Source of the DNA: Chromera velia
Lineage: Eukaryota > Sar > Chromeraceae
Reading direction: 5' to 3'
Length of the DNA stretch: 33,264 nt
NCBI GenBank assembly: GCA_018398765.1
Contig: JAHBMJ010000679.1
Span: 7,553-40,816, forward strand
Shown: positions 3,639 to 33,179 of the stretch, one piece after another
Layout: each line of letters begins with the position of its first letter
Position numbering within the stretch: the first letter of the stretch is position 1
Translations under genes and position numbers: made by a program
The notes under the pieces: model-generated
The model's database searches: none
What the model saw: the letters and a program-made list of their open reading frames with translations, nothing else
What the model was told of the DNA's origin: nothing

Positions 3639-5278
3639 ATGAGTTACCACTACCCTCACTATCCCGCTCCTCATGGGTACCACCACCCTGCATATCCCCC
3701 TCCAGCAGGAGCCCACTCCCAATTCCCTCCTGCAGCAGCCGCTCCAGGGCAAATTCACTTAGGCTCTCCTTCACCTGCACCCGCCCCTCGGCCTGTCGAC
3801 CACAGCTTGAACGAAATCTCGTTGGAGTACACGTATGCGGTCAGCAAGAGGGGGTGCTTTTCAGCTCACTAACCTGTCTACGAGCTCGGAGACAGAGAAA
3901 ATTTTTCCTGTTCCCGTGAGAATTTCCTTCAGAGAAGAGGACCAGTCCTCCCCTGGCTGTCTGGACTGGTTGCTGTACTGTGCATTCTCCTCTTCCCTGT
4001 CTTCCTGAACGTCTGTGTGCCCCCCAATCCCCTGTGTCCCTTCTTGCAGGATCTCCGCGAGTCAACCAACAACTTCGACGAGAAGTGCAAACTCGGGCAC
4101 GGGGCCTACGGATGCCTCTTTAAAGGAGTCCTCAAAGATGGTCAGCCTGTCTTCTTCGTTAAGCTGGACTCTTCAAAGCATGATACGATGAAAGCAGCCA
4201 GGCTGGCTCTAAGTTTGTGTGGGCCACAGGTTCCCTCAGTCTGCCACCTTTGTCTGTGGCGAAGAATCGTCTGACTGGACTTCCAGATTTCTCAGCTTTC
4301 GACTGCTCATGTGCGGAGACGGAAGTCTGAGGAACGTTCAATGAGTTGACGGGGGAGACAGGGAGGAGACAGACAGGGAGGGAAGATGAATTAATACGCG
4401 TGCCAGGTTCGACAAACAATGAGAATCAGAAGGGCCATGCTTTGCTGTTTGGAATTCGTTTTTGAGGAGACGGACGAGCGGACCGAGAGGGAAAAGGAAA
4501 AGCCGAACCCTTGGTTTCTCTCCGTCTTTTCCGCTCGGTGCTTTGTCTTCCCTTTCCTTTCACCCTTCATCTTCGCTCTTCTGCTTTCCGCCCCATGCTC
4601 TCCTTTTTTCTCTTTTTTGGACCGGGAACAAAGGTACCAACAACGGTCTTGCAGCCCCCCCCCATGAGGTAAATGTGTACATGTCTGTTGTTGCCTTTTC
4701 TCTTCCCCCCCCCAGGAACGGAAGTGGCCATCAAGGTCCTACAGAAACCCTGCATGCATTTATTTTCGTACAGAATTCTTTTTCATACAGACTAAATAAA
4801 TAATATTTTGTATGAAAATAATTCTGTATGAAAATAAATGCAGGAACGGAAGTGGCCATCAAGGTCCAACAGATCCCAAAGGAAGCCGGATTTGAGGAGG
4901 TGAAGGTGCTGTCGAAATTTTGACACCCGAACCTAGTCATACTCATGGGGTTTGCAAGAAATGGGGCTCAGAGACTGCTGGTCTATGAGATGCTTCCGGG
5001 CGGGGATGTCAGCAATCGACTTGCGTCAGGTCGGTCAGTCTGCCAGTCTGCCTGTGTAAGAAGGAGGAAAAGGAAAGAAACAATGAATTCTCGAATGAGT
5101 CCGTCCAGACTTTTGTTGCCCTTTCTTGCGTTAGTTTGTCCACAAGTCGTGTTGCGCTCCTTGTCACAGCCTCCAGCATTGAAAGGCAACCCTGCGTGCG
5201 TTTACGTGTAGGTGTATGGGGGCGGGGGTGGGTTGTGTCTGTGTATGTGTGCATGTCTGTGTGTGTGACTGAGTGTGG

Positions 5279-5346
<68 letters not shown>

Positions 5347-7764
5347 AAGAGGATACGTAGATGCGTGAGGGTTGCGCGTGCACATAATCGGGGCATGAAC
5401 ATCTTTGTTTGCACTTGTCTGTTCTTCTTTCCAGGTCCAACGTTGAGTTGGAAGCGTCGACTGACGATTCTTCTAGATGCTGCGTGCGGGGTATCTCACC
5501 TTCACAACGCCAAACCGAAAGTCTTCCATAGAGATATCAAAACCGCCAACATCCTCCTAGACCGTAACGGCACCGCCAAGATAGCAGACTTCGGTCTCGC
5601 CTGTCTGATGCAAGCAGGTCAGTCGATCAGCACGAATTAGACGGAAGCTAGTCCTTCTCTTTTCTCTCCTCCTTTCTTCTGTTGATGAGTTCAAGCTGCG
5701 ATCGAGCCCGTCTCTTCTCGTCTTAAAGCCGCACCGAGGTGCCTGCATGCCTGCATGCCTGCCTGCGTTCGTGTCTGCCATGCAGCCTTTGAAGACACTT
5801 GATGAGATTTGATCTGACGGAATTCCAATAGCTTTTTTTTCGAACACAGCACATGCTCTCCGATCCCCCTTCTCTGAGTCATGAGGGTGCATGAAGGCTG
5901 TCTGTATGTATGTAAACATGTGTATCCGTCATTTCTGTAAGGGAGGGCTCAGACAGGCATGCAGACCTGCATCAACTCTCCCACCCTGCCTGCCCGCCTT
6001 CTGTCTGCCATGTGAGGGAACCCCACAGCTCACGACCCGAATGGCACTGCCGGGCCCTCATCGTCCCAGTCCTACAAGGTCCAGCAGACGGCATTTATTT
6101 TCATACAGAATTCTGTATGAAAAAAAAAGTAAGAAAATAAATAAATGCAGGGCCCTCATCGTCCCAGTCCTACAAGGTCCAGCAGACGGCGGGAACGATC
6201 GGATACGCAGACCCGCTTTACATCAAAAGGGCAGTCAGTCAGTCAGTCTGTCAGTTAGTTTTGCTGCTGCATGACCCCACTGCTTCTGGTAAGTGAGTAA
6301 ATCCGGAGGGGGGGGCAGAGACGAAGGTGAAGGAGAGAGGGGGGGGGAGGTTTCTGAAGCGATTGATTCGATCAGCGTAGGGGACAATGGTCGTCACAGC
6401 CTTGCAAGGGTTTCTTCACACTGCTCACGCATCGCTCGGTTCCAATTTGATCCCTCTGCCTGCCGTTAGATCTCTTTCCACTGGACAGACGTACACGCTT
6501 TTTTCTTCCTCTCCTCTGTTTCCATGCAGAGCTCTGGTGAATGAGAAAACGGAAGTTTACAGTTTCGGAATGGTCATTCTGGAGCTCCTCACTGCCAAGC
6601 CGCCTGCCGTACAAGTCAGTCGGCAAAGAAGCGAAGTTTTGATCTTGCATCCATGGGGTCCGTTTTGGCCTGCCCTGCCTGCCTGTCTTCCTTCCTTCCT
6701 GTGTGCCTGCGTGCTGTCTTTTTGCTTTGCATGGCTCTTCTTTGTGGAGTCTTGTCCTGACCCTAGAGACATTAGGATGCACAGCAAGGAGAGAGGAAAG
6801 AAGACGAAACAAGATTGGGACACTGAACGGAATAGTGGAGTCGATGGGTGGATTGGTGATGAATATATTGGAAAGGGGGATAGATGGAGGTCGGTCTGTA
6901 TGTCCATGGTAGAGCGAGGTGTCACGTGCGTGGTGGAGTATTTCTCTTTTGATCTTTTCTCTTCTCGGATGCCTAAAGATGCTGCCTGCCTGGCTGCCTG
7001 CCAGAGTCCAATGGAAGGAAAGAAGAAACGGACAACCATGCGTATGGTTTTGTTTTCTCTTGTGTACAATCAATGAATTAATTAATCGATTGGTTGATTG
7101 ATTGCAGAAGTCTAACGGTGGCATCGAGTAGCTTGCCCACTCGATTGGGAAGGACGTGGGGCTGGTGATGGGCCTCCTGGACCCCAACGCGACGTGGCAC
7201 GAGGGGTTCGCACACCAACTGGCTGTCAGTGCTTTCGAGTCAGTCACTCAGTCAGATAGCATGGGCGTGTGTGAAACGGGGGGGTGAGAATGAGGAGAGT
7301 GAAGGGATTTTTTCCTTCTTTCCTGCACGTGAGTTGAGTTGACTCAGCGGCGAGGTTGGAGGGAGAGACGTTCTCCTGGCGATGAGTGCGTGCACTGCAG
7401 TGGACTCTATACACCCCACTGCAGTGACTGGATGTCTCTCTCTCTTGGTTCTTCTCTATTCAGTTGCCTGCCTGCTTCCTGCCTACCTTCCCCGTTGCCT
7501 GGTTTCCTCCTTGATTGTTTTCCCTTTTTCTTTCTTTCTGTCCCTCAGTGATGCTGAGTAAGAGCAGAGTAGTTTCTTGGGCCCTTGCATGCTCTGCATG
7601 AGGAGAATTAACGCGCTTGCATTCATTGTGCTTCTTTCGAGTGAGATTTTTGCGTTTTGTTTTCTTTTTCTTTAATGTGAGCTCAGGTGCATTCAAGACA
7701 TTGAGAGCGCCCGTCCAGACTTCAAAACTCTGGTGAAGCGCATCAGAAAAATGGTTAACGAAAC
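3639..7764 (+). CDS. Kinase-domain exons (exons 1-8)
   Basis: Exon 1 is low complexity (MSYHYPHYP...) and ends EYTYA, which joins DLRESTNNF in exon 2, a juxtamembrane-type motif of plant RLK/Pelle kinases. Exon 2 holds the glycine loop (LGHGAYG); exon 3 the VAIK lysine, the alpha-C glutamate region (FEEVKVL), an in-frame TGA, and LVYEMLPGG of the hinge. Exon 4 holds HRDIKTANILLD and DFGLA, both intact. Exon 5 holds the activation segment ending GTIGYADPLY (ADP in place of APE); exon 6 EVYSFGMVILELLTAKPP; exon 7 LLDPNATWHEGFAHQLA; and exon 8 LRCIQDIESARPDF, the C-lobe Arg region. As a family these are Ser/Thr kinases; HRDxK with Asp, Lys and Asn suggests the ancestor was active. No transmembrane segment or signal peptide is visible, so a cytoplasmic kinase is likely. 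Exons 3 and 5 carry introner-like insertions. Confidence 0.8.
4713..4873 (+). mobile_element. Introner-like hairpin insertion 1 with 33-bp direct duplication (kinase exon 3)
   Basis: The sequence from CAG plus 30 bp of exon 3 occurs twice (4713-4745 and 4841-4873) with one mismatch. Between them is an 88-bp near-palindrome (4755-4842) starting TGCATTTATTTTC and ending GAAAATAAATGCA, with inverted arms of about 38 bp. The normal mRNA can be made in two ways: the second copy is preceded by ATGCAG, a valid acceptor, or the AAG|GT inside each copy can act as donor (4735|4736) and acceptor (4863|4864), removing 128 bp. Either gives identical coding sequence apart from the one mismatch. Confidence 0.8.
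5282..5343. repeat. (TG)n-(GA)n compound microsatellite in kinase intron
   Basis: A TG run passes into a GA run within intron 3; open frames here are repeat translation only. Confidence 0.9.
6052..6190 (+). mobile_element. Introner-like hairpin insertion 2 with 41-bp direct duplication (kinase exon 5)
   Basis: An identical 41-bp exon segment occurs at 6052-6092 and 6150-6190. The insert between shares its ends with insertion 1 (GCATTTATTTTC...AAATAAATGCA) and contains a 26-bp perfect palindrome centred on GAATTC at about 6107. Read straight through, the insert would break the frame. Splicing from AAG|GT in the left copy (6078|6079) to AAG in the right copy (6176|6177) removes 98 bp and restores the activation-segment codons (SYK|VQQTAGTIGYADP). 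A new mini-intron is the simplest reading. Confidence 0.8.
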
Positions 7765-14872: not shown

Positions 14873-16980
14873 ACAGGACAATCAGAGATGGGGTCGACGT
14901 GACAGAAGGAGAGGAGTGAGAAGTGAAAAAATGGAGTAAAAGCTCAATGAACGTTGGCTTTGTCAAAGGGTCAGCCATGTTGGAATGGGAACGGACGAAC
15001 GAAAGGCGGATAGAAGCTTCATCCAGCGCATCACAGAGGGAAAGGGTGTGTAGGACGAGTGTGCAAGGCGATTTTTCGATGATGCAGAGCTGAAGTGACT
15101 CTATGACGGATTGGAGGGCATGCTCGGTCGGACGGGGCATCTCACTGGAAACCAGCTTCAGCAAGTCATTGGAGTCTACCCCTACTTCAGCCATAACTCC
15201 CGCTTTCCAGACGCACCTCAAGACAGGCAAGAGACACTCTAAGAAATCAACAAGGTCATGAGCAGCGTAGAGTTCAGCTCGGGTAGAAGACCGGGCGACT
15301 CGCTTTTGGGAAAATGCCCGCCAGTGTAGGATGGTAAACTTCAAAGTGAAGAGCCACCCAGACTGTGGATGCGCATTTCCGGCAGACCCCAATGCGGCAT
15401 CGCTCCATGACTTAGTGGAGAGGGGGGATGATGTGGAAGGGACGTCAGAGCGAGAGATACGGAGGATGCGGGAGGTGGCGGTGCGTCGGGCATAACGGAG
15501 AAAGGAAAGGAGATAATCAGCATCTGTGTGAGTGGGAGCAGAGGAATGACGGCTTAGTTGATTGCACCCTTGTGACAAGTCGGGGCGAGTGTCTCGTGCA
15601 ACCCACGAAAAACACCCTAACCTTTCACGAAAGGCTTTTCCTTCCTGGGTTGTCAAGAGACGGAGCGGTTTAGAGGGAAGCTCGCGAGACGATGGGGGGA
15701 GGGGGAACAAATCAGGAGGGGGAGTGGGGACAGAAGAGGGAACGGAAGCAGAAGAATCTGCAGAATCCTCCATACCCTCAGGGAGGGGGAGAGACAGGAG
15801 GTACTCGGTTTGGTGGATGTGCACGGAGTTCCGTGACACATTAAAATCCACCCCTGCCCAGCGGAGGGTTCCGTTCTCAGGTTTGGTGATCTTCATCTGG
15901 TAACCTCCTTTGGCTGCAATCTCGCGTGCTAGCTGAACTGCAGACCGACTAATAGGCAGGATGGCAAAGTCGTCAACAAACGTGGGAAGGATACCAAGGA
16001 GATAGGAAGTGGGGGCCTCAGGCTTACCCGTCCATTTCCACCACATTCCTCAAACAGAGCAAGGCACCCACCCTGCTGCTGCGAGCGTCTTGTTGCGAGA
16101 GCGGTCCCACAAATTTCCAGAGTCGCGGAGCCCGTAAAGCGCACGGTTGAGGAGCCACAGGAACTTCCCATGGTCTGGGTGATCTTTCGGGGGATGGACA
16201 TAAAGGGAATCGGAACGGAGAGCCGTGAGGTACGCTGTTTTCACATCGGCCACAACGATTTCACGGGGGTCAAAGTCGGAGTGAGCAAAGGCCATGGCAA
16301 GGGCAATGCGTATGGCAGACTGCGAAGCAGTAGCGCAGGACGTTGTGACTCCTTCACGGTGGTCGAAAAAAGGAGTGCCATCAGCAACGACTCGAGACTT
16401 GTACTTCTAAGAACCTTCCTCGACACGCTTCTTGGTGTCAACAAAATGGGTGGGCACAGCAAAGCGGCGGTGCTCGGCGTCTACTTCTGCGATTGGGACT
16501 CGCTTGTATGCATCATTGTCAGCAATTAAGTGACTGCAACTCTGCGGCACGGGACTTGGCTCGCCCGTCGAGCTGTTCTACTATGAGCCCCCGGTGTGGG
16601 AGAGGAATGTAAGTTGTGGCAGCTTGGAACGCACTGGGCCCCACCTCAGTATCCTCGTTCCACAAATACACAACAGACGCACCTGCAACTGGAGTCGGGT
16701 GGGGGGGAGGAGGGAAGATGGCAGCCACGGCTGCTGAGGAGGCAAGTGAATCGAAAGACAGCCGATCGGTGGGGAACACTGTTTTTGGGCTTGCAAGGAG
16801 AACACTTCGGTAAGTATCACAGAGGTGGGAGGGGAGAGTCCCCTCGGCAGAGACGACAATGTTTCGCTCAACAACCTCTTCTGGGACTAGAAAGCAAAGC
16901 TCGGGCCCACACCCAGAAGGTTTTTGTGCACCGTACAAAAGTTTGGGGCGGCCCCTGAGAAGGCACCATGCAGGCTGCAT
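14871..16980 (-). pseudogene. copia reverse transcriptase and RNase H region
   Basis: After a linker (16519-16980) a one-base shift near 16530 moves the frame. RT motifs are KYKSRVVADG, VADVKTAYLTAL, LLNRALYGLRDSGNLW and FVDD (catalytic aspartates, in TFVDDFAIL). RNase H shows SWSDAALGS, SSTRAELYAAHD and a later Asp (VGVDSNDLL), the usual D-E-D set. Breaks are TAG at 16407-16409 and TGA at 16050-16052. The region from 16046 to 14871 is one uninterrupted 391-codon frame ending in TAA. Confidence 0.9.
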
Positions 16981-17016: not shown

Positions 17017-19221
17017 CTATGCCTGAACCTCAACCCGTCCCTCACCTTCAAGGTCGACAGTACGGACACTACCAAGGAAACAGCGGCCTGTGTTCTCATC
17101 CCGCCAAAGAATGAGCTCATCTTTGCCAAAATCAGTGATGTCAAACTTGGGAGAAGGCGGCTGGTCAGACGGATACTGTATGTTTGAAGACTGTTGCGGT
17201 TGCTGCTGTTGCGCCTGGTGAGGAGACCCAATGGATGTGTCCGGGCGCTCGGAAGGGGAGTCCAACGGCAACGGAACGACATAGACAGGGTCTGGGTGGG
17301 GGCTGTCATTGGGACGGATGCACCAGCGATGCGACAGGATGGGCCGTCCAGAAGGAAGACGCAATCGGAACACATGCTCACTTATGCGCTGCAGAACAGT
17401 CGCAGAAGTGTAGAGGGGTGCAAGCTTAGCGCGGGGATGGTCAGGGTGATGGTAGAGGACGGACGAGCCAATAGGGAATGGGGACATCTCGGCAGAGGGG
17501 CGACGGGAGGTCTAAAGGAGGTTACGCAGGGCGTCGATGGGAGGACTGGGTGGCTGGGCACCCTAGCGTCGCTCGAATGGGCTCTTGTGAGTGGATTCTC
17601 GAGGCTGACGATTGTATTTAGCTGTGGCAAAGGAAGCAAACTCCTTCCAATGCGAATCGTCAAGACCTCGATCTCTGAGAATGCCCCGCAAAATCGTGAG
17701 CCACTCACGATGGGAACGCTCTGTTTTGCCGAGAGAGTGGTGGCTGCCTAGAGGGGTCAAGGGGTTTGTGGCTTCCCGCTTAGCCAACCACTCACACCAA
17801 TCACCTTGAAATTCGATCCCGTGATCGGTTATCACCTCAGGGGTGAGATTACCCTCCAGACTGCGGGACCAACAATCATAGACGGCACGGATTGTGGCAG
17901 AATCTTTTGTTTCGACTACCTCTTGAGCAAGCCAGTCATCATGCTGGTCTTGGATGTGCAATGAATACCCCCCTTTCAACCCCATCACAAGGTCACAACA
18001 TACTCGCTACCTAGGGCGATCGACCTTCAAAGACCTCCGGGTGCCGTCTCCCCCATGCCTCAGCTTCACATGCGCACACATACCCCCTCGGATGCATGGG
18101 AGCAGGGCGCGTTGAACGGCATGGTAGGAAATGCTGCTACGACCGGGAAGAAGGTCAGAAAGTGACGCACAGAGGGAACGCCAAGTGGCCTCGATGCCTG
18201 CGTGTCCTAACCATTCGTGATATGCGCGGATGAGTTCATCAACAGTGGCTTTAATGGAGATGGGGGGGGGGTGCTGTGAGAAAGAAGATTTTGGTTGCTG
18301 AGAAGGAGGCTGATCGGAGGCTGAAGAACTGTTACAAGATGATGAAACGGGGGGAGAGACAGCGGATTCTCTCGAATGAGTTTTCATAATATGAGACTGG
18401 GTGCGATTTCCTTGATGCTGCTTCTTCTTTTTGGTTGCCTTCAAACGAGCGGGGAGGTGTCCATTTGCGAGGACAACCGGAAAAGGAGACAACGGAGGGG
18501 ATACAGGCGATGCAGGGTCCACCGCAACGGCCGCTGGAGACACAGAAGGAGAATTCAAAACGGGTGGGGACTTGGGCGGGGAAGTCCCATCTATCTCCAG
18601 AGGCAGAAAAAATAGATCATTTGCTGTATGGAGAAAATTGATAACGGTGGAGGGGAGTTCCAAGGATCCAGTCCGATAGTCAAATCGCGCGCCTAGTTTG
18701 ATGAGACGCTGATTGCTGATGAGTGAGAGGATGACTGCTTCTGTTTCTATGATGGACGGTTTCAACATAGCAGGCTGCCCATTTAGTTTGCAAGGAATGG
18801 TGGCACGGCGCCGCATCCTCACTTTTGTTCGACAAGCAGTAACAACGGAAAGAGGTGTCGGCAAATCAGTCTCAGTCCATTGCAACCCTGACTCTTCAGC
18901 ATGCTTGTTCAGCCAGCCACGAGTGCACGTAGTGCCACTTGCACCCAGATCAAGCAAACACATAAAACCGTCAAAAGAAAAACTAGAAGAAACAGGAAGA
19001 GAAAAAGCTGACTGTGATAAATGCCCTACAGCGGCAGCTGCAGGGGAGGCCTCCGAATCTGCATCCGATGCCTCTAACTCATTCATTTCGCCAGTTAGAG
19101 CCCCTCCCTGCTGACGAGTTTGCCCTTTTCCTGATCCTGTAAACTGTCTCCCCCTCTTTCCCTGCCCGCCCCCATTCCCGCCGGACCCGCCCCCGCCTCC
19201 ACTGTAGCCGTAGGCCCTCAA
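17017..19221 (-). pseudogene. copia protease and integrase region
   Basis: An aspartic-protease-like motif reads LLDLGASGTT near 18950, with Leu where the family has Thr or Ser (D-T/S-G), so the active site may be damaged. The GAG-pre-integrase His pair is in YHEWLGHAG near 18220, with downstream Cys residues (CIRGGMC). The integrase core follows, with CDLVMG, ITDHGIEF (second Asp) and GKTERSHRE (Glu). A Pro/Gln-rich tail ends the segment. In-frame TAG codons are at 18007-18009, 17563-17565, 17512-17514 and 17017-17019; all flanking sequence stays in one frame. Confidence 0.85.
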
Positions 19222-20280
19222 GAGGGCAAAGTGGTCACAGGCGAGGTCACAGTCACCAGTCTTGTGTCCCCAGTGATCACAATCGCTACAGTACTGCTAT
19301 TTCAGGCTACAGTAGTGGGTCTTGTGTTCATAGTGAGGGCGCTTTCGAGACGGTCCACTCACACGGGGCCGAGGGTGGCCAGTGGAAGAGCGACCTATTA
19401 GCTGCACGCCGTATGTTTGTGCGGGAATGGATGGATTGGCAGGGAGACGGGAAAAACAAGAGGGCTGGGCAAAGTGGTGGAATTTGGCTACCGCACCATC
19501 ATTTCCATCAAAAGGCATATGGGGGGCGATGCTGCTCTCAACATTCGTACACACAGTGCTGTCGGAAATGCCGTTGATGAGGACCAGGGAAGTGAGCTGC
19601 CCCTGACGGCAGGTGAGCGGGTCAAGGAGGGGAACGAGCTTCTTCTCCACCCTCCAAGTGCTGAAATCGGTTTTGTCTCCCACTCCGGACCACACAGGGA
19701 CAATCTCTTCCTACAACGAGAGACAGGAAATTTCTCGGCAGGCTGCCCTCACCGTCTCGATGTACTTCTCAACGTTGGAGGAGTCGGAAGTGGACAGAGT
19801 AAAAAGAAAGCGGAAGTTTGTGAACATCCGCTTATGTTCGGTTTCCCCCGATAACTGCAAGATGACATTCTTGCAGTGTTCGATATCATCAGACTTGGGG
19901 GGGGAGAGATCTGAGACAAGATCGTAGAGCTTAGGGTATTTTTGCAAACCCTGGCAGAATGCTGCTGCACGGATGTCTGACGGCGCACTCACAGGCTGCA
20001 ATTTGCAGTGGTCTTCAAACGCCTTGACAATCGTGACTCTACCCCCGTGAGTATTCTTGAAGGGGAGCTCGCACTTCCATGGGGCGAATTTCCCCATGTC
20101 AGTGGTGGGGGTGGGAGTGACTGTCGGAGATGGAACAGAAGTGGACTAAAAAAGAAATAACTGCGCCAATTTGTTGACATTGGCGGTCAACAAGTCCAAG
20201 TCAGAGAGGCTGGGGCTTTGATCAGAAGGGCCTTTGGAGATAAAACGGCCATCGGCCCCTCGAGGTTGGTCTCCGTCCAT
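19222..20280 (-). pseudogene. copia gag region with CCHC zinc knuckle
   Basis: The likely start is the ATG at 20280 (MDGDQPRGADGRF). The frame then runs through the capsid-like region to a Gly-rich, basic tail beginning near 19205. A CX2CX4HX4C knuckle (YCSDCDHWGHKTGDC) lies at about 19249-19293. The single frame is interrupted by TAG at 20146-20148, 19711-19713 and 19297-19299, with no indel between them. Gag packages element RNA in the cytoplasm. Downstream pol is in the same frame, so this is one gag-pol polyprotein. Confidence 0.8.
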
Positions 20281-21332: not shown

Positions 21333-22681
21333 CTAGTCCTTGGCATCTGTGCTTGGCCGGTCTATGGCCGGAGTGCTCGAGGGGGCACTAGCAGGTGGGG
21401 GGGAAGAAGGTGGGGGTCGGGGGGAGGGGGGGTGGAACCTCGGGGGGTCCCTCAACCAGGGCCTGCCCGCCCTCCACCAGTCGATGTCGGACGGCGAAGA
21501 GAGCAACACCACTGAGGGGCCGTCCTGCCAGACGGTGGAGCGGAGTGAAGAGACAAACTTTTTGTTGGCCGGAGACGGAGAGGGGTGTGTACAGTTGGCA
21601 GGTACAGGTTGAAGTTCACTGCCTCTCTGATCATCTGCCGCCGAATCTGTAAAGGACTTTGTCTGGTCGCTCGACGGGACGGTCACCGTGGCTGTGTGAC
21701 TGTCACTGTCACTGTCACTGTCACTGTCAGTCGACTTGACGCTGGAGGAAGGGTCAGCGGGAAGACGTTTGGATGTCTCACTTTGTCCGCCTGAAGAAGA
21801 AGAAGGCGAAGGAGAAGATGGCGAAACTGCAGCTGTCACTGTCGGCGCAACTTCGGCGGCCTTCTTTTCCTTCTCCTTCTCTTTCCGCAGGGCGAGATGC
21901 CTGCTACTCCACGCCTGTACACTGAGTTTTCTTCGGTCAGAAAGAGGAAGCGGACCATGTTGCTGGTGGTGGTGGAGGGGTCTCAGGGACTCAGCAGAGC
22001 CGGGCCGTGCGTCTGATGCAGGCTGACTTAGAGAGTCGCTCTCTCTGTCGGTCTGTACCTGGGCGTCTCTTTTTCCTCCTGCAGAATCAGAGTTTTCTTC
22101 TTCTTGTGGAGGTTCCACAAAATCTTCTGGCAGGGGGGTGGGGTGACGAAGGTACCTGCATGCAGGCGCGCTTGTACGGAGGCAGGCACCGTAGAAGCAC
22201 AGAAAAAATGTATGCAAACGCGAATGCAACGAACCAACGAACCAACCAATCAATGAATCAAATAAAAAAGCAAAAATGGTATGCAGACAGACGGAGTCCT
22301 CTCTCACCGAAATGCGATCCTTCCGTACTGGGAAAAAAGCAAGGAAGTAAGGACGGAAGGAAAGAAAATCAGATTATTGCGTCCTTTCGGTACTCATCTT
22401 TGAAGTACAGAGAGCACCTGCCTGCTTTGCTTCCATCCTGTCTGCCTGTCTGAGCCTCCCTGGCCTCTTCCAAAGCAGTCTTAGAGAGGAGAGGAGAGTA
22501 GAGGAGAAAAGAGAAAGGCAGGGGAAAATCAAATCCGTTTGCAGGTGGAGCGCAAGAGAAAAAGTCAAGAGGCGCATCAAAGAAAGGGAGAGAGGCACCT
22601 TGTTACCCCGCATGAATGAAAAAAACGACACTCACTCTCTCTCTCTCACACACACACAGAGAGAGAGAGAGAGAGCGAGCG

Positions 22682-22757
<76 letters not shown>

Positions 22758-22766
22758 CGAGAGAGA

Positions 22767-22806
<40 letters not shown>

Positions 22807-25289
22807 CAACGGATGACAGACATGCCACAGCAAAAAGCAAAGAGGGAAACGAACGAACGAAGGGAGGAAGGAAGAGAAGAAGCCCAGAGAAGTAAAACGC
22901 ACTTATCGAAGAATTGTAGTAGTTTCGCTTTGTTCACCGAGGACCTATCGCGCGCAACTGTAGACAGACGGGCGCCCCTGCAAAGGTATGAAAGAAGGAA
23001 CGATTCCATGTCGATGCAAGTGCTTCGAGTTCATCAATTGAGCCATCCATGCGCAGCCTCTCAGGACCTTTCCTCCTTCCGCCATTCCATTCTTTTCTTT
23101 CTTTCGTACACCGCAGACAACAACTTGCATCTCAAAGCAGGACAAGACAAAACGACAGGAGACACGCAGTCTCGCATTCCCGCACGAGAGAGAGGAAAAG
23201 CAAAAAGGAAGGGAGCGTGCCCACTGCGGCCTCCATGCATGGACAAACACACACACAACTCGAAGAATCCCTTCCAAAGTACACATGCGGTCTCCCTTGC
23301 TGCTGCATTCCCTGTCGCTCTCTCTTACGGTTCCACCTCCCCTCATTCACAAACAGACAGGCCGACAGAGACATACAGAGGGGGAGACAAAATGGTTCTT
23401 CTTGTTCCGCAAAGAAACAAAAGGGAGACAGAAAGACAAAAAACCAAAAAAGGGAAAAGAAGAAAGGAAAGAAGAAAAAACACAAAGAACATGAAGTCAT
23501 CTAACCTCTCGAAGTCAAAAGAGCCCAAAACGATCTCTCCCCAGAACCTAGACGCGCTCTGCTCCAGACTGCAGTGAGACAGACAGGCAATCGCACACAT
23601 ACAAATGCACTCACGAACACACAAACACACACACACATACATACATACATACATACATACACACATACACATACTCCCCCCCATACGCGCAGTCACCCAC
23701 TCACACGTTCTCACGTGCGAGCAAGCACCCACAAAAAGATCTGCAACTGTACACACACAAAACAAACATGAACCCACCTCTTGTCTGCGAGTGAATATTT
23801 GGAGGCAAGTCCGTTGGCCGCTTTGTCAAAGTCTTCGTCGCTCATCTGATCGAGCTCCTTGCTGCATCCATTTATTTACACATATTTGTTTAGATACATT
23901 TACAGAATTCATCTGATCGAGCTCCTTGCTGCATGCATGCAGTTTTTTTTTTCTTTTTTTTTTCTTCTTCAAGCTCCTTGCTGCATATGCGCATGCAGTG
24001 AATTATTTGAGGGGCAACGGGAGATCGGGTCTGCATGTGTGATTGTTTTCTCTTCTTCTTTCCCCCCTTCCTTCACTGACGCACGCGAATAATTGAAGCT
24101 GTCCAGCACGCACGGACGGACGAAACGAAGGAAGGAACAAAAGACAGGAAGCTTCCAAGAAAGAAAGAGCGCAGGCAGAGAAACTACAAAAATCAGGGAA
24201 AACAAATTGTTTTCTTGAAGAAAAATAAGGAGGAGAAAAGGACGACCGAAAATCCCTCCCCTTCTTCCACGCGCGATCAATTTGACCACCGCTATCCCCC
24301 CCCCCCCGTTGCCGGGTGCCACCTCACCAACCGGAAGCTCTCTAGCCGCTGCTCGATGTGTATCTCCAGGTCCATGCATTCTTTTTCACTCACATAATGC
24401 ATGCATGCACCAACCGGAAGCTCTCTAGCCACTGCTCGATGTGTATCTCCAGGTCCACAGGGTCTGCCACTGTGCTCTGCACCACCACCGAGAGCCCTCT
24501 GTGTCCTCCGGTGCTACGGACGAAAGCGCTGACGATATATCTGCATTCATTCATTCATTCATTCGTTCGTTCGTTCCTTCGTTCGTTCGCTCATTCATTC
24601 ATTCATTCATTCATTCATTCATTCATTTCTCTCCCATGTCGTTGTATAAGTATATGCATGTCTTTCGGTGTCTCTCTCCCGGGTTCTTCTCTCTACTCTC
24701 ATGTTCTTTCCTTCGTTCTCCTTTCGTCACTTCGCCAGGCGTCCCATGGGCAACAAAATAAAACCCACCCAAAGGAAAGGAAAGGAAGCGAAAAAAAAAG
24801 GATATGCGGGAGGGAGGGAGGGAGAGGGAAAATTGTGAAGAAAGGTGCAGAACATAGAGCCGCGCAGACAGAGCGCTCGGAGCAAGTGTCTGTGGATTAA
24901 CGCAGGCAAATTAGAAAGGAAGAAAAGTCAAAGAGAAGAGGATCACAGGAGTCCGCGGCTTTCCTCTTCGCTTCGTTTCTGTCTCTTTCTCTCTCTCCTT
25001 CTGACAGACATGTAGACCGTCTTTTCTTCTCTTCTTCTATGGACACTCACCCGAGTTGTTTTTGCGTCCGCATTCGGTAGAACGCAGACCTGCACAGATG
25101 CGCGATATATGTGAACACACTTATGAGACTTCCAGTAAGGAAAAGAGGGGGGGGCGGGGGCAGGCCACAGAGAGTGAGGAAAAGAAGCAGGAGAAAGAAC
25201 ATTAAGGCAGGTCACGTACATATTCAAAAGAGCTGCATAAAGTGCACCTACTTATATCCACACACTTACACATCCATAGATAGACATAC

Positions 25290-26270: not shown

Positions 26271-27528
26271 CTGGACACACCTGCAGGGAGGCAGGCAGGC
26301 AGGCAGGCAGGCAGACGAGGAGGCGGAAGGATGCACGCTTGCTTTCTTTCTGTCCGTTGCTTTATTCGTTTGTTTGTACACCCCTGCAAACTGAACGTGT
26401 GTCCTCTCCATACACGTGCGTGTGAATTCAGTTACGCATTCGATCATTCAATTCGCCTGAAAGAAAGAAAGAATAATCAATCCAGGGGGGCATGAGGCAT
26501 GAGGCAGGCAGGGGGTCTGCAGAGGACCCGAAAGGGGACCGAGGGAGCGGGGGAGAGAGACGGGAGAGAAACTGACTCAGGGCTACGACACCCGCATCCC
26601 ATACAGCCAGCCTTCCTCCTCCTTCCCGGTGACCCACCGACCAACCGTATCGAGCGCCTCTCCCCCAATCCCGACAACGCCCTCCCGCCCTGCAGCCAGG
26701 GCCCCAGTCCCGTCTCTCCCTTCTCTCCTCCCAAGAGGCCCCGAACCGCGGATTCCGCACATTCCAAGTCAATCGCACCCCCTGCCTGCAAAAATGGTAC
26801 GTTGGTTCAAGAGAGGATAAGCCAGGATGGATACACAATCAATCCTGCATGCAAGGTCGCAGTAGTAGAAGAAGAAGTACATGCATGCAAGCACGAGAGG
26901 GTAGCTGGCATGGCATCGCATGCAGAGAGAGCAGAGAGAGATCCATTGACAAACAAAGGTCGGAGGGAGATCCGCATGCCAACAAACCAAGTGACAGACA
27001 GACAGACAAACAGAGACAGCCAGCATGCAGCAAATCCAGTCACAGTAAGCAGAAGAGAAGAGAAGCAGGCCTATCTGTGTTTACCCATGAACGCACCAAC
27101 CATGGCAGAGAGATCAGAGGCCCTCAGAACATCACGCGCCACCTCCGCAACCCTTTGGAGGTTACATGCCTGCATGGAAGAAAGAATTTCTTTGGTCAAC
27201 AGCAAAAGGCCATTTTTGAATCTTGGTTGAGTGACTCTTCTGTTCTCTTCTCGTGCATGTCTCGATCAAATGGAGAGACTGAAGCCAAAAGAGAGAAAAG
27301 AGGGGCACTGAACCGGCCAGACAGACAGACAGACAGACAGGAGATGCAGGCAGCGATACAGTCATGTGGCGGTGTATTGCAAGCAAGGGGCCAGCCAAAT
27401 CCCTCTCCTTCCTCTTCTCTCCTTAATTCGCCCAGATGATCCCCAGAAGAGAAAAAAAGAAATCAAACCGCAAACTTCTGCGTCCATTTTTGTTTTCTCT
27501 CTCTCCCTCAAACACAGCCAACGCACGA

Positions 27529-30737: not shown

Positions 30738-32309
30738 CCTGCCTTGTATAGCATGCCAATAGTACCACGGCATCATTAGGTTCCACACTGAAGCGATAAT
30801 TATTCGTTCTTTCTCTCCCCCCTTTTTTTGGCTTCTCCTTTTCTTTCTCTCCTTGCTTTTTTTTTTTTTGGCCTTCGTCCATGCAGTCAGTCAGTCAGTC
30901 CGTTTGTCTTTGTGCACCCTCCGCCCATGCATTCTGCTTCTCGATCTGTATGTTTCTGTCTGTGCTTGTTTCTTATTTCGACTCACCGAGTTGCCACAAA
31001 TGTTTGAATTACTTCTTCCAACTCTTCTCTTTCGAGGACCATCTCTCGCTCTCTGCCTCGATGCTCTGAATTTCCGTCTCCCTCTCGTGAAGAAGAAAAC
31101 ATTTTTGTCGACGAAGAAGATGAAGAGGGCCAAAGACGCCGTCTCTGGAGCATCTCTCTCATCGTCCCAAAAATCCCCCTCGTGCTCTCTTCCGCTTCCC
31201 TTTCAGACCTCAATGCCGTCTGTTCTCTGCAGAGCAAGCATGCAAACGAAAAAGAAAAAGGAAAACAAATGACCAAAGAAGCATTCTTCCGGACCCATTT
31301 CACGTTTCCCCAAGCCAGACAGACCATTTGTTTTCTTTCTGAAATCATCAACCGATCGGACTGCCTTGCACGTCCTTCCTGCCAGAAGAAAAACTCGAGA
31401 GCTAGAAAAAACTCTTGGAACCAAGAAAATGGCTGCACCACTTGCGATCAAATTGTGTCGCCTTTCACGAAAGAATGGCAGGAAACTAATTCAACAAACA
31501 AATCAGTCACTTAAAAAAAAAAAAAACAGAAAGGATTGACGTACAGCGAATTGCCCAGACAGGATAAACCTCTCCTCAAGGGTTTCGCAGAGGCAGACAC
31601 AAAACAAAAAAAGGGGATTGGTGAAAAACATTCGCAGAAACACACATGCAAAGGCATCGCTTCCTTACTTCCTTCACTTGCTCACTCACTCCCTAGCTTG
31701 CTTGCTGTGTCTGTGAGACAACGCCTTCTGATGGATATGGGATACACTGATTCTCCGATCCGTCCTGATTCACTGGCCCTCAGCATCATCCTCTGACCTA
31801 CCCCGTCTCCGTCTCCTCCGCCAACCTCGCCGCCCTCTCGCAGAGATCCACAGTCCGACCAAACTCCTCCCCGACCCTCACAGCCAAAACAGGAAGTTTG
31901 GGCGCGAACCCCCCGAACAAGAAATCCAGACTGCCGCTGGCACCAGAGCACCGGACCAGACAATCAAGACCTGCGGGTGCATGCATGTGGTTACATGCAT
32001 ACATGCATTCACGTGGTTTTATTTACGCGTTGATTATCTTTCTGCATCTGTATTCCTTTGGCAGGTCGGGACAGCACTCCTCCATCCGAACAAGATCGCA
32101 TCCCATGCACACGACAACGAAGGAGGTGCGAAGCAACACGCGCGAAAGGAAATGTCAGAGGGGTCTCTCACGTCCCCCCGGCAGAGAGAACAAAGAAAGA
32201 AAGAAAGAAAGAAAGGAAGGAAGGAAAGAAAGAAAGAAAGAAAGAAAGGAAGGAAGGAAGGAAAGAAAGAAGGAAAGAAGGAAAGACGGAAAGAAGGAAA
32301 GAAGGAAAG

Positions 32310-32347
<38 letters not shown>

Positions 32348-33179
32348 CACTTGCGTGCACGCCCGCTCTCGTGGCATGACGGAACCAACCAACCAAGCCT
32401 TATCGATCCTTCCGAAATCAAAAACACAAACCTCCGCTCATACACACGACAAAAGAAAAAAGAAACCACAACGATTCCTTCCAAGTTCAGCAAGCAATCG
32501 AGCAAGCATAGTGAGAGTGTCAGTGACCTGCTCTCCCGGCGTCGTAGAGCGTCTCTCTCAGTCTCTCGTCGAGGATTTCGAGGAGGATGCGGAGGAGAAT
32601 GGCGGTGTCGGCCGAGTGCCCCAAGTGACAAGAGGTCAGACGGAGGTTCAGGGCAGACTTGGGGACTTCGTGTTGGGGGGCGACGAAGTGGTACACCTCC
32701 GCCTGCGTGCACACAGCGTTTGAGCAAGCAAGCAAGCAAGCAGGCGATTAATCATGCATGCAGGGACCAAGTAGCTCACAAACAGACGCGCACCCAGGTC
32801 TTCTCCAACTGGATGTGCAAGAGCCGTTGCGAGTTGGGTCGGCAAATGAATGAAAAGAGAAGCGTTCGGAGGAAGGGTGCATGTATGCATGCATGGATGG
32901 CTCTCTCAATTTCTCTCTCTGCATGACGACCCCATGCCTTGACTGCCTGACTGACTGACCTTTCTGCCCCCCACTTCGATGAGTTTGCGTTCTGGCAGAG
33001 GCACTGCTTTCTTCTTCTTGTCGATCATCTCGTTGGGTCTTTCCGTTTCCTTTGGGAGCACTTCTTCTTTTTGGTCTTCCGGTAGCGCTTCGAGAAGTTC
33101 AGAAGGCACAAATGGGTTGGGAAGAGGCAGGAAGAGCGACGAGGGGGCGCTCTCTGCATCTGCACTCAGGCCCAGGAGC
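21333..33179 (-). CDS. M16 (insulysin/IDE-like) zinc metallopeptidase gene, C-terminal half
   Basis: Minus-strand exons in order: 33179-32960, 32702-32528, 31970-31802, 31226-30987, 27699-27624, 27169-27085, 26781-26642, 26270-26184, 25517-25387, 25089-25051, 24540-24411, 23857-23778, 23568-23506, 22977-22903, 22155-21333. Every junction is GT-AG and in phase. The order of motifs follows insulin-degrading enzyme: LPLPNPFVPS linker, FVAPQHEVPKSALNLRL, RAGLDCLV, GGFAPKLP, then NSALELHLQ, RTQKQLGYIV, FWGEIV and RRKLSVQAW. In IDE the Arg and Tyr of RTxxQLGY contact substrate; both are present. The zinc site (HxxEH) lies in the N-terminal domain, outside the window. The role is likely degradation of short peptides in cytosol or an organelle. 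TAG ends the frame at 21333. No in-frame stop was found, so the gene looks functional. Confidence 0.85.
22634..22802. repeat. (CT/CA)n-(GA)n microsatellite, about 165 bp
   Basis: A long GA tract with occasional C, inside the last M16 intron. A 325-codon plus-strand open frame crossing it is not a gene. Confidence 0.9.
23632..23672. repeat. (CATA)n / (CA)n microsatellite in M16 intron
   Basis: Tetranucleotide run within the intron 23777-23569. Confidence 0.85.
23842..23986 (-). mobile_element. Introner-like insertions 4a/4b: exon start present three times (M16 exon 23857-23778)
   Basis: The exon start with its acceptor occurs in full at 23842-23867, as a 26-bp identical copy at 23909-23934, and as a shorter copy at 23972-23986. 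The 41-bp insert between the first two (23868-23908) has CCATTTATTTAC and TTTACAGAAT, close to the hairpin family arms. The insert between the second and third is a T-rich tract plus TGCATGCATGCAG on the coding strand. Only the innermost copy continues into coding sequence; the others give cryptic acceptors (GCAAG|GAGCT). Confidence 0.7.
24325..24457 (-). mobile_element. Introner-like insertion 3 with 50-bp direct duplication (M16 exon 24540-24411)
   Basis: A 50-bp segment covering the end of the exon and its donor occurs at 24325-24374 and 24408-24457 with one mismatch. The 33-bp insert between has ends TGCATT...AATGCA plus an extra TGCATG. On the coding strand the first copy ends FRL followed by GTGCATGC, so the insert itself supplies the GT. 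The second copy, with the presumed original donor GTGAGG, is left inside the intron. The coding sequence is unchanged by the insertion. Confidence 0.75.
24545..24627. repeat. (ATTC)n/(GTTC)n microsatellite abutting an M16 acceptor
   Basis: On the coding strand the (GAAT)n run leads directly into GCAG and the exon at 24540, replacing a normal pyrimidine tract. Confidence 0.85.
25286..25332. repeat. (CT)n-(CA)n microsatellite in M16 intron
   Basis: Dinucleotide runs within intron 25386-25090; a second (CA)n run lies at 25556-25589 in the next intron. Confidence 0.85.
25734..26135. repeat. Minisatellite in M16 intron
   Basis: About six or seven units, each a CAGACAGAC-type core followed by ATATGTTTCTTCTT and a pyrimidine-rich arm ending TTCATGTACAA or similar; unit length about 50-80 bp. 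It lies wholly in the intron 26183-25518. The many open frames here are repeat translations. Confidence 0.7.
26642..33179 (-). CDS. M16 domain-2/3 exons
   Basis: The first exon (33179-32960) carries FLPLPNPFVPSELLEALP, which in IDE-type enzymes ends the N-terminal half, followed by a Lys/Glu-rich linker. Exons 2-3 carry the first strand-helix unit of domain 3. Exon 4 (31226-30987) has FGTMREMLQRRRLWP, at the position of the IDE helix before the YxxA segment, then a family-atypical Ser/Arg/Glu insert of about 50 residues. The next three exons (TWAAYTLMNKDF, VLRASDLSAMVGAFM, GAIDLECAESAVRGLL) fit the end of domain 3. Exon 4 joins the exon at 27699 in phase across a 3.3 kb intron. Confidence 0.75.
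28585..29499 (-). CDS. Open frame inside the long M16 intron; possible cassette exon
   Basis: 304 codons, rich in Glu, Ser, Cys and Gly, with no recognised domain. An acceptor (CTGAACAG) ends at 29393 and a GTCAGG donor starts at 28791, bounding a 601-bp exon-like segment (28792-29392) in this frame. Its end phase does not match the next M16 exon, so it would need another exon to join. It may be an alternative exon, a nested gene or chance; codon content is not clearly protein-like. Confidence 0.25.
   Translation of the reverse strand: MVSGYFNQVDGCVGGGVYRYARVERVLWTLALLLNRKKEKGLLREGKRRQAEEEENESTGGRVAPQSGLMTQLQSLGENGEGLSDWGNMCISETGEGGEREDAAVAFAQQNSHCCLCEKETEMDLRDSIQTDCWTAEPCGFASASHGEKEEFVSDSHHSDCCRFECPLSFSSVLGERERDALTEDSEASCVCLSPCDCCSCEERCWGGRRSRGREEMERAKGGGSRTPRSKTRSSTVRFVCLLACLVLCSFVGFFIGEMPRVEKWGRIVVQAVSFTELESHRVMIAMEGSRCSFLQRPFFLVLH
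29565..29600. repeat. (CAGA)n-(GA)n microsatellite
   Basis: Inside the long M16 intron, followed by GGA/GAA triplets to about 29620. Confidence 0.85.
29689..29759. repeat. (GAGT)n/(GAGC)n degenerate tetranucleotide repeat
   Basis: Units of GAGT, AAGT, GAGC and AAGC alternate over about 70 bp inside the long M16 intron. Confidence 0.8.
30007..30071. repeat. (CA)n-(GA)n microsatellite
   Basis: CA run followed by GA run inside the long M16 intron. Confidence 0.85.
30194..30277. repeat. (GACT)n/(GGCT)n tetranucleotide repeat
   Basis: About twenty units inside the long M16 intron; the complement is (AGTC)n, the same motif seen at many 5' splice sites here. Confidence 0.85.
32191..32345. repeat. 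(AAGA)n/(AAGG)n-(GA)n purine tract, about 150 bp
   Basis: Nearly pure purine on the plus strand within the M16 intron 32527-31971; overlapping open frames of 120-340 codons on both strands are repeat artefacts. Confidence 0.9.

What the first reader, a model, noticed from the sequence alone, without database searches (positions are those of the whole stretch)
6052..6190. A new intron apparently created inside kinase exon 5 by a hairpin insert with a 41-bp target duplication
An exact 41-bp exon copy lies on each side of a 57-bp hairpin insert. Each copy contains AAG|GT, so using the left copy as donor and the right copy as acceptor removes exactly one copy plus the insert and restores the conserved activation segment. 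This matches the proto-splice-site (AGGT duplication) model of intron gain. A 41-bp duplication is far longer than the 2-11 bp that DNA transposases leave, so the mechanism may be paired-nick or break repair with filler DNA, or a new class of introner. The perfect identity suggests a recent event.
Basis: partly seen in the sequence, partly recalled or inferred. Interest (0 to 1): 0.9.

Follow-up and report, generated by a model that had tools for sequence, protein, structure and literature searches.

The report
Hairpin insertions that capture splice sites
A short DNA hairpin, one of hundreds scattered through this single-celled eukaryote's genome, landed in a kinase gene, duplicated 41 bases of the exon and supplied a splice site that a matching transcript record uses, so an existing intron grew longer instead of a new one being born.

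Summary
In detail: a 57-bp hairpin (6093-6149) between exact 41-bp copies. A paralogous locus on contig C320 has this site, and a second one at 4713-4873, empty with each duplicated stretch once. Both are insertions with 41- and 33-bp target duplications.

The proposed intron 6078|6177 is not what the RNA-derived record shows. P0008 (sources MMETSP and JGI) equals, 137 of 137 residues, the splice 4945-5029|5435-5617|6151-6296. The exon is entered at an AG formed by the element's last A and the right copy's first G, so intron 4 grows by 122 nt and eight codons are lost. The gene copy itself is decayed.

The element is dispersed: 2030 arm matches, 20 in the control. Its duplications are long (median 38.5 bp, n=78), border coding and non-coding sequence more often than controls, and favour TGCAG edges. 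No two of 78 elements exceed 86% identity, although 23 have identical duplications. That fits assembly at insertion better than copying from a master. This mechanism is inferred.

The parts
4713..4745 (+). left copy of the 33-bp target duplication of element 2 (spans the acceptor of the exon that starts at 4715/4716)
   Evidence: single copy in paralogue L086 915-947
4746..4840 (.). element 2, hairpin with reiterated arm modules
   Evidence: 4752-4842 folds at -39.7 kcal/mol
4841..4873 (+). right copy of the 33-bp target duplication of element 2
4945..5029 (+). coding part of the first kinase exon covered by P0008
5435..5617 (+). kinase exon; donor 5617|5618
5618..6150 (+). intron 4 as implied by P0008 (the old intron would be 5618-6028)
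   Evidence: inferred from a protein record, nucleotides of the transcript not seen
6029..6052 (+). 24 nt of the old exon 5 start that P0008 lacks (AHDPNGTA)
6052..6092 (+). left copy of the exact 41-bp target duplication of element 1
   Evidence: single copy in L086 2096-2136
6093..6149 (.). element 1, 57-bp hairpin insert
6149..6150 (+). AG of the 3' splice site: A from the element, G from the right copy
6150..6190 (+). right copy of the 41-bp target duplication
6151..6296 (+). exon as in P0008, read through the old exon-5 donor region to a stop at 6294-6296

Best explanation
The feature is one member of a dispersed family of short (about 30-125 bp) AT-rich hairpin elements whose outer ends are TGCATTTATTTTCATACAGAATTC on both sides and whose insertion duplicates about 40 bp of target. 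Shown: insertion with a 41-bp duplication; dispersal; long, variable duplications; non-clonal interiors. Shown at the level of a matching RNA-derived protein record: the element's TGCA end, followed by the G of the duplicated target, acts as a 3' splice site, so element and left copy become part of the upstream intron. Inferred: two opposite-strand nicks some 30-46 bp apart, often at TGCA(G); each 3' end is extended by copying one short template of about 24 nt, sometimes repeatedly; the two tails join in the middle; gap filling makes the long duplication. An insertion is tolerated when the duplication spans a splice junction or supplies one, because an intact exon copy is left outside the element.
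For: Empty paralogous sites. P0008 137/137, and no AG at that spot in the paralogue. Family counts 459 v 10, 115 v 0, 2030 v 20. Direct repeats of score >=16 at 56 of 85 clusters v 7 of 95 controls and at 44 of 51 further loci. Pooled singles n=78: median 38.5 bp, IQR 30-46, range 17-67, 23 identical. Nearest-neighbour identity of the 78 elements median 0.76, maximum 0.86; a 62-nt element with a perfect 49-bp duplication has no other full-length copy. Exactly one coding flank in 31 of 47 and 17 of 30 v 36% of control windows. TGCA at 35 of 156 outer edges v 6.7%, followed by G in 23 of 35 v 27%. Second locus: P0121 is uninterrupted across the L104/L144 element.
Against: No nucleotide transcript was seen. 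Only 25 of 48 set-A elements have a recognisable arm at both ends, 23 at one end. 29 of 85 and 7 of 51 loci gave no repeat of score >=16; some are chance word matches, a few (L103, L118, L126, L140) show 11-15 bp repeats, L135 a lone arm. Loci with coding sequence on both flanks are not rarer than controls in set B (7 of 30 v 11%) nor in set A with 48-nt flanks (12 of 47 v 17%), so purging of exonic insertions is not shown. No template RNA and no enzyme was found or looked for systematically. In P0121 the upstream junction does not show a clear GT donor.
Confidence: 0.7

Rival explanations
1. A new intron 6078|6177 inside exon 5, made by AG|GT in the two target copies.
For: AAG|GT is in both copies; 27 of 78 duplications hold AGGT on one strand or the other, and in set A 19 of 48 v 0.20 of controls. 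Removal would restore the frame.
Against: P0008 lacks the eight residues this splice keeps. The enrichment of AGGT is also expected if duplications simply span existing donors.
Confidence: 0.06
2. A MITE (non-autonomous TIR DNA transposon) moved by an unknown transposase that cuts with a stagger of about 40 bp.
For: Hairpin with matching ends, dispersed copies, duplications, TGCA target preference.
Against: Duplication length varies 17-67 bp; arms missing at one end in 23 of 48; no near-identical siblings even among insertions with identical duplications; no longer element met in the loci read.
Confidence: 0.2
3. Target-primed reverse transcription by a LINE, SINE or Penelope-like machinery in which both 3' ends prime on the same RNA 3' end, so that the hairpin is two truncated copies of one RNA end joined.
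For: Variable duplication length; same sequence read inwards from both ends with fidelity falling after about 22 nt; TGCA at the target edges could pair with the RNA end; reiterated modules.
Against: No body of a retroelement with this end was found; a single-locus DNA search gave only arm matches. This is a special case of the best explanation.
Confidence: 0.25
4. Ordinary break repair at paired nicks with filler DNA, without a mobile element.
For: Long tandem duplications with filler are what paired distant nicks can give (recalled; one search saw listings only).
Against: The same filler sequence recurs about 2000 times as arms against 20 in the control.
Confidence: 0.05

Closest known systems
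Introners (Gozashti et al. 2022, PMC9860276; passages seen)
   Same: Short dispersed elements in genes, some with TIRs and TSDs; in Symbiodinium microadriaticum the introner carries its 3' splice site.
   Different: The passages give 3-9 bp repeats for characterised families and 4 bp for Symbiodinium; here median 38.5 bp. Here the record shows lengthening of an old intron, not a new intron.
Amoebophrya introner elements (Farhat et al. 2021, PMC7789003; passages seen)
   Same: Hairpin-forming inverted repeats with direct repeats, in an alveolate.
   Different: Direct repeats of 3-5 nt and non-canonical introns; here tens of bp, and an AG acceptor.
Intron gain by tandem genomic duplication with AGGT (review PMC3443670, passages seen; potato RdRp case PMC4974935, listing only)
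   Same: A duplicated exon stretch containing AGGT.
   Different: The copies are separated by a dispersed hairpin, and AG|GT is not what P0008 uses.
MITEs (class known in general; PMC7789003 passage)
   Same: Small, hairpin, no coding capacity.
   Different: Long variable duplications and no clonal copies.

Membership tests
Introner | dispersed repeated sequence within genes | tested here: met
Introner | insertion creates a new spliceosomal intron | tested here: not met
   Two loci with RNA-derived records (P0008, P0121) show an existing intron lengthened, none a new intron; others not testable here
Introner | copies of one family are similar end to end | tested here: not met
   nearest-neighbour identity at most 0.86 among 78
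MITE / TIR DNA transposon | terminal inverted repeats at both ends | tested here: inconclusive
   both arms in 25 of 48, one arm in 23 of 48
MITE / TIR DNA transposon | short duplication of fixed length | tested here: not met
   17-67 bp, median 38.5, n=78
MITE / TIR DNA transposon | cognate transposase | not tested
   no search for transposases was made
LINE/SINE (target-primed reverse transcription) | duplication of variable length | tested here: met
LINE/SINE (target-primed reverse transcription) | polar element with a distinct 3' end | tested here: not met
   the same end sequence is read inwards from either side
Tandem-duplication (AGGT) intron | splicing at AG|GT in the two copies | tested here: not met
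   P0008; protein level only

The most novel reading that the evidence does not exclude
A machinery in this eukaryote makes a staggered break of about 40 bp, often at TGCAG 3' splice sites, and writes a new hairpin into it each time by repeated copying of one short template from both 3' ends. The hairpins are not copied from one another; they are written anew, and their TGCA end hands the gene a ready 3' splice site.
Probability: 0.35. Interest if true: 0.92.

Novelty: new variant of a known kind. Interest (0 to 1): 0.76.

Why it matters
It gives a natural series of dated insertions, with an empty paralogue for two of them, in which one can watch how inserted DNA is taken up by splicing: by moving the 3' splice site of an old intron, a step between transposon insertion and intron gain. 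If the hairpins are composed anew at each break, that is a mode of insertion unlike cut-and-paste or copy-and-paste, and the combination of long variable duplications with non-clonal inserts makes it testable by sequencing alone.

Tried and rejected
My own first reading of many duplications as splice-junction-spanning was by eye from ORFs and splice signals; the controlled test is. One search had a counting error in its 'both flanks' column, corrected. The coding score was trained on 1042 codons from exons that I chose by eye, own locus left out; controls for set B come from set-A loci, and control windows of one locus are not independent. Coding on both flanks was not depleted in set B (7 of 30 v 11%) or in set A with 48-nt flanks (12 of 47 v 17%). 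My exon start for the SPT-like gene was wrong (P0121 lacks YNDNR). A search with the L108 exon found nothing; five window ORFs had no Pfam match. Species: size and contig number would allow Chromera velia (193.66 Mb, 5953 scaffolds in passages of PMC4501334, v 177.8 Mb, 4040 contigs), but no protein named Chromera was among the 120 listed of 427 or 120 of 1112; left open. Literature on long duplications: eight paper searches; nothing matching in the listings, which is no proof of absence; supplements could not be read.

Rows dropped: L003, L007 and L084 (overlaps); for the n=78 set, clusters with score under 17, repeat length outside 17-70 or gap under 25 (L134, L137, L143, L096, L102 also excluded by name) from 85 + 51.

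Full report
What is there. The window holds a 57-bp hairpin between exact 41-bp copies at 6052-6092 and 6150-6190, and a second, 95-bp one between 33-bp copies at 4713-4745 and 4841-4873, both in exons of a plant-type (TKL-like) kinase gene. The word GCATTTATTTTC occurs 459 times in the 177.8-Mb genome against 10 for the pattern read backwards; the 22-mer arm 115 against 0; the 18-mer arm with up to two mismatches 2030 against 20. Matches are arms, not elements, and include tandem arrays, so the number of elements is smaller and was not counted.

Insertion is proven by a paralogue. A protein search of the own genome led to C320, 83-90% identical in DNA to the window over the best three aligned pieces (80% in a fourth), introns included. 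It aligns to window 4745 and 4841 with the 33-bp stretch 915-947 once, and to window 6092 and 6150 with the 41-bp stretch 2096-2136 once. The window copy has in-frame stops at 4921-4923 and 7129-7131 and has lost the exon-5 donor (by eye; the paralogue was aligned over the first stop and the donor only). It is a decayed but apparently transcribed copy.

What the RNA record shows. P0008 (sources jgi and mmetsp, two member sequences) was found with the kinase exons. Joining 4945-5029, 5435-5617 and 6151 onward gives it letter for letter, 137 of 137, including read-through to a stop at 6294-6296. The splice enters at AAATAAATGCAG|GGCCC, where A belongs to the element and G to the target copy. I saw only the protein.

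A second record. L104/L144 is a serine palmitoyltransferase-like gene (Pfam PF00155 on P0121) with a 53-bp duplication, two mismatches. P0121 (jgi, contig 3302 bp, 531 aa) matches four stretches of this locus exactly and runs on without the element. Residues 315-325 fit either copy; those after fit the downstream copy only. The simplest reading is entry into the downstream copy, with upstream copy and element in the intron. The upstream junction shows no clear GT donor at protein level; this is unresolved.

The family. Of 85 word clusters (set A), 56 have a flanking direct repeat of score >=16 against 7 of 95 control points; of 51 further loci at arm matches (set B), 44 do. Pooled single insertions (n=78 after the filters listed under Tried and rejected) have duplications of median 38.5 bp, IQR 30-46, range 17-67, 23 of them identical, mean divergence 3.9%; inserts have median 65 bp. 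Arms read TGCATTTATTTTCATACAGAATTC inwards with 73% or more agreement to position 18 and then scatter (73 of 96 ends recognisable). In 23 of 48 set-A elements only one arm is recognisable.

Not clonal. The nearest neighbour of each of the 78 inserts has median 0.76 and at most 0.86 identity, while the duplications that date the same insertions differ by 3.9% on average. A 62-nt insert with a perfect 49-bp duplication has no other full-length relative. Units of the arm recur head to tail in L068 and as an 18-nt array in L134. I infer synthesis at the break from one short template with re-priming; no template or enzyme was shown.

Where they sit. With a codon-usage score (own locus left out), exactly one flank is coding in 31 of 47 set-A and 17 of 30 set-B duplications against 36% of 1864 control windows at 66-nt flanks; left-right asymmetry p=0.0007 and 0.0003, at 48 nt 0.012 and 0.0049, at 90 nt below 0.0001 and 0.014. 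Coding on both flanks is not depleted throughout (3 of 47, 7 of 30; control 11%). TGCA lies at 35 of 156 outer edges against 6.7% and is followed, reading into the duplication, by G in 23 of 35 against 27% (p=1.8e-6); YAG at 41 of 156 against 12.8%. Element-borne ATGCAG at an inner junction: 27 of 156 ends, 11 where the host already had TGCAG, 16 where it had not. Whether this is targeting of 3' splice sites or survival of harmless insertions is open.

Compared with the known. Introners (PMC9860276, passages) share dispersal, occasional TIRs and a carried 3' splice site; their reported duplications are 3-9 bp in the passages seen. Amoebophrya introners (PMC7789003, passages) have 3-5-nt direct repeats. 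I file it under none of these: defining features were tested and not met. It works like an introner that carries a 3' splice site, and it looks like a MITE.

Certainty. Insertions with long duplications: near certain. Dispersed family: near certain. Use of 6150|6151: likely, protein-level evidence. Composition at insertion: suggested by non-clonality, not shown.

Noticed in passing
G000:C3687:11290-14612 (L132, L142, L143): 24 listed arm matches spaced 119 bp apart in two blocks: a satellite-like array whose unit holds an arm and a non-arm stretch.
   Followed up: partly
L134 (G000:C3413:67450-67850): An 18-nt unit ATTTTCATACAGAATTCT (with variants) repeated head to tail, continuing to about 67936; possible relic of repeated template copying.
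   Followed up: partly
L108 (G000:C1529:8780-9450): Two elements at one open stretch of about 61 codons, one duplication spanning its likely acceptor and the other its likely donor (by eye); no homologue found.
   Followed up: partly
L008, L016, L036, L039, L048, L057, L059, L096, L097, L102, L139, L141: Target copy plus element repeated two or more times in tandem.
   Followed up: no
window 5280-5345: Adjacent (GT)n and (GA)n microsatellite runs inside a kinase intron, shorter in the paralogue.
   Followed up: no
window 14874-16046 and 18010-19293 (-), 22351-23571, 26633-27433, 31769-32920 (+): Long open frames without a Pfam match; the first two look retroelement-like by eye.
   Followed up: partly
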